A stretch of 35,922 nucleotides of DNA from Gemmatimonadaceae bacterium (GTDB lineage: Bacteria; Gemmatimonadota; Gemmatimonadetes; Gemmatimonadales; Gemmatimonadaceae). Below the pieces are notes generated by a model. That model searched no databases and was not told the origin of the DNA. It saw only the letters and a program-made list of their open reading frames with translations. Below are positions 25,186 through 35,922 of the stretch, piece after piece. Within the stretch, counting starts at the first letter, position 1. Each line of letters opens with the position of its first letter. The translations under genes were made by a program, and so were the position numbers. The stretch is from positions 1-35,922 of the forward strand of contig JADZDM010000022.1 of assembly GCA_020851035.1 (NCBI GenBank), given 5' to 3'.

Positions 25186-26091
25186 ATGCCGCTGCACTGC
25201 TGGTCGTCGCCGCGCTATGCGATCACGCTGCCTGACGGCCACCGCTTCCCGATGGCGAAGTACGCGCTGCTCCGCGAGGGCGCGCTGGCGCAGGGGCTGG
25301 TGTCGGCCCACCGCCTGCACGAACCGGCGCGCGTGGCACACGAGGACCTGCTCCGCGTGCACACCGGCGCCTACGTGGCGGGCGTGGAGCATGGCACCCT
25401 CGATCCCGCACACCAGCGCCGCATCGGGTTGCCGTGGAGTGCGGCGTTCGTGGAGCGCGCCTTCCGCGTGGTGCAGGGCACGGCAGAGGCGTGCGCACAT
25501 GCCGTCCGGCACGGCATCGCGATGAACCTGGCCGGTGGCACGCACCACGCCTTTCCCGACCGCGGCGAGGGATTCTGCGTGTTCAACGACGTGGCCGTGG
25601 GCATTCGCCGGCTGCAGGCGCAGGGCGTGATCCGCCGCGCCTGCGTGGTGGACCTGGACGTGCACCAGGGCAACGGCACGAACGCGGTGTTCACCGACGA
25701 CGCCACGGTGTACACCTTCGACATGCACGGCGCGCGGAACTTCCCGTTCCACAAGGTGCCGGCGTCACGGGACGAGCCGCTGGACGACGGCACGGACGAC
25801 GCGGCGTACCTCGCGCGCCTGGGCGCGGCGCTCCCGGACGTACTGCGCGAGTCGCGCCCCGACCTGGTGGTGTACCTGGCTGGCGCCGACCCGCACGAGG
25901 GCGACCGGCTGGGACGGCTCCGCCTCACGTTCGAGGGGCTCGCCCAGCGCGACGAGCTGGTGCTGCGCACCTGCCGCGAGATCGGCCTGCCAGTCTGCGT
26001 CACGATCGCCGGCGGATACGGGCGCGACATCACCGACACCGTGCGCGTGCACCTGCAGACCGTCGCCATCGCGTCCAGGTTCGCTGACTGA
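25186..26091 (+). CDS. Histone-deacetylase-like (AcuC/HDAC family) deacylase
   Basis: A 301-residue zinc hydrolase of the arginase/deacetylase fold that removes acyl groups from protein lysines or small amines. The catalytic His pair is in GGTHHA (120-121); zinc ligands are Asp158 and His160 ([10 protein letters not shown]) and Asp235 ([10 protein letters not shown]); the transition-state tyrosine is in GGYGRD (278). CVFNDVAVG is also typical. The true substrate is unknown; bacterial members deacylate acetyl-CoA synthetase or polyamines. Its TGA stop lies exactly at the left edge of the inverted-repeat element at 26090-26344, so that element may have supplied the stop. Confidence 0.93.
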
Positions 26092-26344
26092 ACTGCAACT
26101 GCGTAAACGCAAAGTCGCAAAGCGGCCTGCGGCCGCCGCAAAGGAACAGGGCGCCCTGCGCGCGACTCGCGACGTCTGCGTGGGCTCGTGTTGAACTGCC
26201 GAGGGAACTTCGGTGGCAGTTGCAGTTCCCTCAGCCATCCCGACGCCCCTCGTTGCGCAGAGTCCCGCTCCCGGCGCAGAAGGCCGGCCCCTTTGCGGCG
26301 GCCGCAGGCCGCTCTGCGACTTTGCGTTGAGGCAGTTGCAGTTC
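26090..26344. repeat. 255-bp inverted-repeat element with 55-bp arms
   Basis: Arms 26090-26144 and 26290-26344 are reverse complements with 3 mismatches in 55. Each contains CGCAA/GAG-type modules (CGCAAAG twice, 8 bp apart) and the palindromic GCGGCCTGCGGCCGC core. The centre (26145-26289) has its own dyad GAGGGAAC/GTTCCCTC (26201-26208, 26225-26232) and extra copies of the terminal motif: GGCAGTTGCAGTTC at 26215-26228 as well as 26331-26344. There is no open frame of a transposase and no clear target duplication. It resembles a non-autonomous palindromic (MITE- or REP-like) element. It fills nearly the whole gap between the deacylase and S33 genes. Confidence 0.85.
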
Positions 26345-26358
26345 GGGTAGATTGCAGA

Positions 26359-27246
26359 ATGCCGATCACCATCCCGGAGCCGCGTGAGAGCGGCATGACA
26401 CGCACCACCGACGTGCCGCTGTACTGGTGCCGCCACGGGCGCGCGGGTGCGACCCCGATGGTCGTGCTGCATGGCGGGCCGGGGGCGAGCCACGACTACC
26501 TGCTGCCGCAGTTGCTGATGCTGGCCACGCTGGGCGACGGCTTCGACCTGGTGTTCTACGACCAGCGCGGCGGAGGGCGGTCGAAGACCGACGACCCGAC
26601 GCCGGTGACGGTGGACACGCACGTGGCAGACTTTGCGGCGGTGTGCGCGGAACTCGGCGTGACGGGAGCACCGGTCGTCGGCTATTCGTGGGGGGCGCTG
26701 CTGGCACTGCACGTGCTGGTTGCCGCACGGGAGACGGCTGCGACGCTGCCGCCATGGCACGTGCTGATCTCGCCGGCACCGTTCCTCCCCGCCGATCGCG
26801 CCGCGTTCGACGCCGAGTTCCAGCGCCGGCAGCTCTCGCCTGCCGTGGCCGGCCTGCGGACCGCGCTGCAAGCATCGGGACTGCGCGAGGCGGATCCGGA
26901 GGCGTACCGGCAGCGGGCGTTCGAGCTGAGCGTGGCAGGCTACTTCGCGCACCCCGAGCGCTCGTCCAACCTGACGCCGTTCCGGGTGCAGGGCCGGGTG
27001 CAGCAATCCACCTGGGCGAGTGTGGATGGGGTGGCGCTGCTCCCCGCCCTGGCCGGGATCGGCCTGCCGGCACTGGTGGTGCACGGCACCCGTGACCCGA
27101 TCCCGCTGTCGAGTGCGCGCGCCACCGCGGCCGCGCTCGGCGCCACCTTCGTCGAACTGGACGACTGCGGTCACGTCCCGTACGTCGAGCAGCCCGCGGC
27201 GCTCCGCGCGGCGCTCGAGGGCTTCGTGGCAACCCGGAGCGCCTGA
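26359..27246 (+). CDS. Alpha/beta hydrolase, prolyl iminopeptidase-like (S33)
   Basis: A 295-residue cytoplasmic serine hydrolase. The oxyanion motif is VVLHGGPGASHDY (about 36-47), YDQRGGGRS (67-75) is typical of proline iminopeptidases, and the nucleophile is Ser110 in GYSWG. Asp246 (HGTRDPIP) and His272 (CGHVPYVEQP) complete the triad. Family members cleave N-terminal proline or related substrates. Starts at 26359 (chosen) and 26395 are both possible; a longer frame to 26188 is read through the inverted-repeat element and is not homologous. The promoter must lie in or next to that element, or transcription continues from the deacylase gene. Confidence 0.9.
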   Translation: MPITIPEPRESGMTRTTDVPLYWCRHGRAGATPMVVLHGGPGASHDYLLPQLLMLATLGDGFDLVFYDQRGGGRSKTDDPTPVTVDTHVADFAAVCAELGVTGAPVVGYSWGALLALHVLVAARETAATLPPWHVLISPAPFLPADRAAFDAEFQRRQLSPAVAGLRTALQASGLREADPEAYRQRAFELSVAGYFAHPERSSNLTPFRVQGRVQQSTWASVDGVALLPALAGIGLPALVVHGTRDPIPLSSARATAAALGATFVELDDCGHVPYVEQPAALRAALEGFVATRSA

Positions 27247-35729: not shown

Positions 35730-35749
35730 CGGCAACAGCGAACGGCTTT

Positions 35750-35786
35750 GACGCAAAGGCGCAAAGGGCGCGAAGGACGCAAAGAA
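35750..35786. repeat. GCAAAG-module intergenic repeat
   Basis: A run of GCAAAG/GCGAAG modules (CGCAAAG at 35752 and 35760, then GCGCGAAGG and CGCAAAG) at about 8-9 bp spacing, shared with the arms of the element at 26090-26344. Such modules occur as dispersed intergenic repeats in many large bacterial genomes. Here a single-sided copy sits between the propeller gene and its terminator. Confidence 0.6.
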
Positions 35787-35796
35787 CTGCATGGTG

Positions 35797-35853: not shown

Positions 35854-35859
35854 GGAAAG

Positions 35860-35907
<48 letters not shown>

Positions 35908-35922
35908 TGCCGCGCATTTGCC

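What the first reader, a model, noticed from the sequence alone, without database searches (positions are those of the whole stretch)
26090..26344. Palindromic mobile-like element capping the deacylase gene
Nearly perfect 55-bp arms enclose a 145-bp centre that has its own dyad and additional copies of the terminal motif, as if two palindromic units had merged or been nested. The left boundary falls exactly on the TGA stop of the deacylase. CGCAAAG modules are shared with 35750-35786. A non-autonomous element moved by a transposase elsewhere is plausible, and it could also act as a bidirectional terminator or carry the S33 gene promoter.
Basis: partly seen in the sequence, partly recalled or inferred. 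Interest (0 to 1): 0.6.

Follow-up and report, generated by a model that had tools for sequence, protein, structure and literature searches.

The report
Dispersed palindromic repeats at gene ends
The 255-bp palindrome after the deacetylase gene is one of about a hundred related copies scattered through this bacterial genome, nearly all sitting just behind the ends of genes, so it is a copied, mobile-looking repeat that probably forms a hairpin at the end of the transcript, with no identified enzyme to move it.

Summary
In detail: 55-nt arms at 26090-26144 and 26290-26344, 95% complementary, with a nested dyad in between and a 14-nt end motif repeated inside. It is not unique. In 2.01 Mb of the same genome I found 43 arm pairs, about 106 per genome. 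They share one layout: AACNGC, then a tandem CGCAAAG arm, a GGGAACTGC..GCAGTTCCC dyad, and the inverted arm. Two copies 280 kb apart are 92% identical over exactly the element, in unrelated flanks, so it is a discrete copied unit. No target duplications were found. The three RAYT genes lack these arms, and a relative with its own palindrome set has no RAYT. Placement is sharply non-random: 21 convergent, 19 co-directional and 1 divergent gap; 40 of 41 lie beside a gene's 3' end. At the deacetylase/hydrolase gap, two congeners have unrelated spacer sequence, partly palindromic. Within its order the repeat is patchy, but CGCAAAG arrays, often palindromic, occur in many phyla. Best reading: a non-autonomous, mobile nested palindrome with REP-like location, unknown mover and unproven 3'-hairpin role. 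The mover, termination activity and a promoter role remain unshown.

The parts
26090..26144 (+). left arm: GAACTGCAACTGC end motif, then CGCAAAG modules and a CGGCCTGCGGCCG insert
26290..26344 (-). right arm, 95% complementary to the left arm
26198..26235 (.). central dyad (GCCGAGGGAACT / AGTTCCCTCAGC), equivalent to the family's GGGAACTGC..GCAGTTCCC centre
   Evidence: family alignment
26215..26228 (-). internal exact copy of the terminal motif (GGCAGTTGCAGTTC)
25186..26091 (+). upstream gene, histone-deacetylase-like deacylase (PF00850); its stop codon touches the left arm
26359..27246 (+). downstream gene, alpha/beta hydrolase (PF00561; weaker S33 match PF12146); start 14 bp after the right arm
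35742..35791 (+). left arm of a second family member, truncated by the contig end
35796..35855 (+). GC-rich hairpin followed by seven T inside that second member; a related GGCCCCGATGCGC module occurs in C5:121, C5:20790, C5:185826, C5:465621 and C21:592621

Best explanation
The element is one copy of a dispersed, non-autonomous palindromic repeat. Shown: it is a discrete unit of roughly 200-260 bp with an AACNGC motif at each end, tandem CGCAAAG arms and a nested central hairpin. It has been copied to about a hundred places, nearly all directly behind gene ends, and it is absent or replaced by other sequence at the few equivalent sites checked in two congeners. Inferred: an unidentified machinery that makes no target duplication moves or copies it, perhaps an enzyme acting on single-stranded hairpins or a recombination/repair route. 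It settles or is tolerated behind stop codons because a hairpin there does little harm and may stabilise the 3' end of the mRNA or block read-through from either side.
For: 43 unique elements in 2.01 Mb; 46 (+,-) arm pairings against 0 (-,+); reversed-sequence control gave only hits of E >= 0.26. C5:185826 and C5:465621 are 92% identical over 239 bp, which is exactly the element, with unrelated flanks. The copy closest to the window element is C20:83436-83690, 81%. Orientation: 21 convergent, 19 co-directional, 1 divergent, against 59/204/132 gaps of 200 bp or more (p 6e-8 for convergent excess, 1e-6 for divergent deficit). 18 of 19 co-directional copies lie nearer the 3' end than the next 5' end (read). 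Fold z -11. Distribution: the CGCARAGNCGCARAG pattern scores 75 in this genome, 31 in G085 and 0 in the congeners of G085 sampled in the same search.
Against: No target duplication, no mover found, and no clean empty site with both neighbours kept and a short gap. The best two copies of the window's own subtype are only 81% alike, so there is no recent burst there. Right and left arms of one copy are more alike than chance (z 6-7.5), but a copy's own arm is rarely the single closest. There is no G-U over A-C bias in co-directional copies (51 vs 52), so nothing yet ties the pairing to the sense RNA.
Confidence: 0.6

Rival explanations
1. A host-maintained bidirectional transcription terminator or mRNA 3' stabiliser, kept by selection, that only looks repetitive because the same solution is used at many gene ends.
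For: 40 of 41 copies abut a gene 3' end, about half between convergent genes. At the deacylase gap congener G001 has another palindrome (fold z -3.1). At C5:138 kb congener G002 has a different palindrome (TGAATCGCA..TGCGATTCA) behind the orthologous gene.
Against: No U-tract: 2 of 61 element-bearing 3' ends against 16 of 639 others. The G002 deacylase gap folds no better than shuffles (z -0.1). Sequence-level copying to unrelated flanks and species-level patchiness are hard to explain by selection alone. Several downstream genes start within 20-40 bp, leaving no room for a new promoter if transcription stopped.
Confidence: 0.3
2. A REP/REPIN mobilised by a RAYT (Y1 tyrosine transposase).
For: Copy number, palindromy, extragenic 3' location and absence of target duplications match REPs as described in PMC3733652 and PMC2817692; the genome has three Y1_Tnp genes.
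Against: No CGCAAAG arms near the three RAYT genes; the one read in full (L041) is flanked by a different repeat, GGTTCAAGGGGACGGAGATCTTGAAC. Relative G085, with 31 array matches and clear palindromes, has no Y1_Tnp. The ends are AACNGC, not GTAG or CGTC. Length 200-260 bp against 20-40 bp.
Confidence: 0.05
3. Paired arrays of binding sites for a DNA-binding protein (global regulator or nucleoid protein), as proposed for inverted pairs of tandem octamer or heptamer arrays in Geobacter metallireducens.
For: Same architecture: pairs of sites on opposite strands, each of about four tandem 7-8-mers, with IS elements at a fixed distance (PMC2700814). CGCAAAG arrays recur in many phyla.
Against: Congeners and most of the order lack them, the unit sequence differs between relatives (CGCAAAG, CGCAGAG, CACAGAG), and promoter regions are avoided.
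Confidence: 0.12
4. A promoter or regulatory leader of the downstream hydrolase gene.
For: Only 14 bp separate the right arm from the start codon.
Against: No promoter-like site found; the family avoids divergent gaps; congeners keep the gene pair with unrelated spacers.
Confidence: 0.05

Closest known systems
REP / BIME / REPIN palindromes with RAYT transposases (PMC2817692, PMC3116915, PMC3733652)
   Same: About 100 or more copies, extragenic, palindromic, between co-directional and convergent genes, downstream of coding regions
   Different: 200-260 bp nested palindromes with heptamer arms, no GTAG/CGTC head, not linked to the genome's RAYT genes, present in a relative without any RAYT
Predicted global-regulator sites class 1-3 of Geobacter metallireducens (PMC2700814)
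   Same: Inverted pairs of four to five tandem 7- or 8-mers, multicopy; IS elements near them
   Different: Different unit sequences (GTTGCTYN, MTYCTGA); no nested centre described there; function proposed as protein binding; gene-end preference not stated in the passages read
MITEs
   Same: Short non-autonomous units with long terminal inverted repeats, dispersed copies, unrelated flanks
   Different: No target duplications, no partner transposon with these ends found in the 2.0 Mb examined, whole-length palindromy
Heptameric intergenic repeats of Xanthomonas and Nostoc (GGGAATC, GGGGATT; PMC4692102)
   Same: Degenerate tandem heptamers in intergenic regions, many copies
   Different: Those are G-rich and G-quadruplex forming, described as arrays on one strand, not as palindromic pairs

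Membership tests
REP / REPIN with RAYT | High copy number, extragenic palindrome near gene 3' ends | tested here: met
REP / REPIN with RAYT | GTAG or CGTC head next to a 20-40 bp palindrome | tested here: not met
   ends aligned on the AC.GC anchor read AACNGC with no GTAG (76 ends); length 200-260 bp
REP / REPIN with RAYT | A RAYT gene flanked by the same repeat | tested here: not met
   no Y1_Tnp in G085
MITE of a DDE transposon | Terminal inverted repeats and dispersed copies | tested here: met
MITE of a DDE transposon | Target site duplication | tested here: not met
   35 copies, k = 2 to 10, offsets 0 to 4, no consistent excess over mis-paired flanks
MITE of a DDE transposon | Autonomous partner with the same ends | tested here: inconclusive
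   the four unpaired strong arms inside contigs (C21:466075, C21:481030, C23:247973, C5:566615) flank no inserted gene; 60% of the genome was not read
Intrinsic (U-tract) terminator | Hairpin followed at once by a T-rich tail | tested here: not met
   2 of 61 element-bearing 3' ends with a strict T-tract hairpin, 1 of 61 after shuffling; the window element has only weak matches with tail ACTTTGCGTT
Known structured RNA (Rfam) | Match to a covariance model | tested here: not met
   one chance-level hit, 19.7 bits against a cut-off of 137
Geobacter paired tandem-array sites | Inverted pairs of tandem 7-8-mers in many copies | tested here: met
   description in PMC2700814
Geobacter paired tandem-array sites | Bound by a nucleoid or regulatory protein | not testable with these tools
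   proposed in that paper, not shown

The most novel reading that the evidence does not exclude
A widespread class of mobile nested palindromes whose arms are tandem CGC(A/G)AAG-type heptamers, found in many bacterial phyla, spreading patchily to gene 3' ends by a machinery that is neither RAYT nor a duplication-making transposase.
Probability: 0.3. Interest if true: 0.75.

Novelty: new variant of a known kind. Interest (0 to 1): 0.5.

Why it matters
Dispersed bacterial palindromes are usually explained by RAYT transposases or called regulatory sites. Here is a family of about a hundred copies per genome with strict gene-end placement and clear copying, without a link to that enzyme, whose building block recurs in Chloroflexi, Verrucomicrobia, Planctomycetes, Cyanobacteria and Proteobacteria. 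It gives a testable case for how such repeats spread and whether they shape mRNA ends. It also has a practical effect: the window itself ends inside a second copy, and two other contigs (C5, C26) begin next to copies.

Tried and rejected
RAYT linkage: rejected. Target duplications: none. Rfam: none. RNA-strand selection through G-U bias in co-directional copies (51 G-U against 52 A-C): no signal. U-tract terminators: rare in the whole genome, so not informative for this family. Arm homogenisation within a copy: significant but modest, explainable by subfamilies. Exact search of genome contigs with the 35-mer arm consensus: no hit. Viral contigs: 13 hits, several of them matches inside a coding sequence, a few real heptamer arrays; no evidence that viruses carry the family. 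Literature search for the unit sequence: no description found, which says only that the held library has none.

Full report
What is there. The inverted repeat at 26090-26344 is real and strong: 55-nt arms, 95% complementary, 145 nt apart, with an inner dyad and exact internal copies of the end motif. As RNA the whole gap folds into one long nested stem, z = -11, and its self-complementarity score of 147 compares with at most 36 in 200 shuffles. It starts at the second base of the stop codon of a histone-deacetylase-like deacylase (PF00850) and ends 14 bp before an alpha/beta hydrolase gene (PF00561).

It belongs to a family. A blastn of the own genome gave one 81% full-length copy (C20:83436-83690), others at about 70%, and many partial ones. 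Reading these showed one layout: an AACNGC end motif, an arm with consensus TTTGACGCAAAGGCGCAAAGGGCGCGAAGGACGCAAAG, a spacer, a GGGAACTGC..GCAGTTCCC dyad, a spacer, and the inverted arm. A profile of the arm was run over 2.01 Mb of the genome (C21, C5 and C25 complete, most of C23, about half of C1, the window). It gave 85 strong hits, nearly all of them in (+,-) pairs, against none in (-,+) order. The pairs reduce to 43 unique elements, about 106 per genome; the reversed-sequence control had no hit better than E 0.26. The window element belongs to a subfamily with a CGGCCTGCGGCCG insert in each arm. The CGCAAAG modules at 35750-35786 are the left arm of another copy, cut by the end of the contig.

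It is a discrete copied unit. The copies at C5:185826 and C5:465621 are 92% identical over 239 bp, which is exactly the element; their flanks are unrelated. Most other top pairs also end at or near the arms. Flanks show no target duplication at any length from 2 to 10. The outer ends come in two flavours, RGCATCNTGAACNGC and multiples of AACNGC.

Placement. 21 copies lie in convergent gaps, 19 in co-directional gaps, 1 in a divergent gap, 2 at contig edges; gaps of at least 200 bp in the same sequence are 59/204/132. The excess in convergent gaps has p = 6e-8 and the deficit in divergent gaps p = 1e-6. In 18 of 19 co-directional cases the element is nearer to the 3' end of one gene than to the 5' end of the next (read). 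In about half of the co-directional cases on the + strand the next gene begins within about 40 bp, as in the window, so a complete terminator would leave no room for a promoter.

Comparison with congeners. At the deacylase/hydrolase gap, congeners G001 and G002 keep both genes and the position of the deacylase stop, but their spacers (about 320 and 190 bp) are not homologous to ours. G001 has a palindrome built on CTTTGACGCAGGA (fold z -3.1; its best self-alignment score is within the range of shuffles). G002 has only a weak one (z -0.1), with AACTGC-type ends. At C5:138 kb G002 has a different palindrome behind the orthologous gene. At C21:309 kb, 313 kb and 476 kb the congeners that could be examined have no such element, but there one neighbour gene differs. 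None of the five sites has the same CGCAAAG arms in a congener. This is turnover, not strict conservation; a clean empty site was not obtained.

Distribution. The pattern CGCARAGNCGCARAG occurs 75 times here, 12 and 2 times in the two congeners, 31 times in G085 of another genus whose sampled congeners have none, and hardly elsewhere among 119 relatives (G086 has 23, but its control pattern has 18). G085 carries nested palindromes of the same grammar with CGCAGAG and CACAGAG units and a GGGGGTCCGCACCG hairpin in the middle. Outside this group, GACGCAAAGGCGCAAAGG occurs in genomes of Chloroflexi, Verrucomicrobia, Planctomycetes, Cyanobacteria, Geobacterales and others. In those 80 loci 38 pairs of arrays are palindromic and 94 arrays are single, and gene orientation is not enriched for convergent gaps, so the strict gene-end rule is shown only for this genome.

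Mechanism. The best reading is a non-autonomous mobile palindrome with a REP-like location. Copying and absence at other species' sites are shown; the agent is not. The three Y1 transposase genes have no CGCAAAG arms, and the one read in full has its own unrelated repeats; G085 has no Y1 transposase. Effects on RNA are plausible from structure and placement but untested. Mismatches in the stems show no G-U preference in the sense direction (51 against 52), and strict T-tract terminators are rare both with and without the element.

Comparison with the literature. REPs are reported to lie between co-directional and convergent genes, downstream of coding regions (PMC3733652), and RAYT-linked REPs carry a GT(A/G)G head (PMC2817692). 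The location matches, the head and the enzyme do not. The nearest described architecture is the paired, opposite-strand tandem octamer or heptamer arrays of Geobacter metallireducens, proposed as protein sites (PMC2700814). No paper in the library that concerns such a repeat holds the unit sequence.

Noticed in passing
G000 C5:1-120 and C26:1-120 (L017, L006): Identical 120 bp at two contig starts, each running directly into the arm of a different family member; looks like an insertion-sequence end or other repeat inserted into the element. It occurs at no other place in the assembly.
   Followed up: partly
L041 (G000 C25:163197-163523): A RAYT-like Y1 transposase flanked by its own repeats (GGTTCAAGGGGACGGAGATCTTGAAC), a separate repeat family of this genome.
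   Followed up: partly
window 35859-35910 and C5:465600: Hexamer arrays (AACAGC)n directly at family members, as if the end motif expands as a microsatellite.
   Followed up: no
L309-L320 (relative G085): Nested palindromes CACCACAGAGGGCACAGAG / CGCAGAG / TTTTTTGGGGGTCCGCACCG..CGGTGCGGACCCCCAAAAA, with the T-run before and the A-run after the inner stem, the opposite of an intrinsic terminator.
   Followed up: partly
L094 (Geomonas propionica) and several Nostoc/Anabaena loci: Single-sided CGCAAAG arrays, in Geomonas just upstream of a likely start codon rather than behind a gene.
   Followed up: no
window 26188-27246: An ORF with a GTG start at 26188 would extend the hydrolase through half of the element; automatic annotation could choose this false start.
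   Followed up: no
L343, L345, L347-L351 (viral contigs): A few IMG/VR contigs carry heptamer arrays of the same style (for example ACCGCGAAGGCGCGAAGGACGCAAAGG), some palindromic.
   Followed up: no
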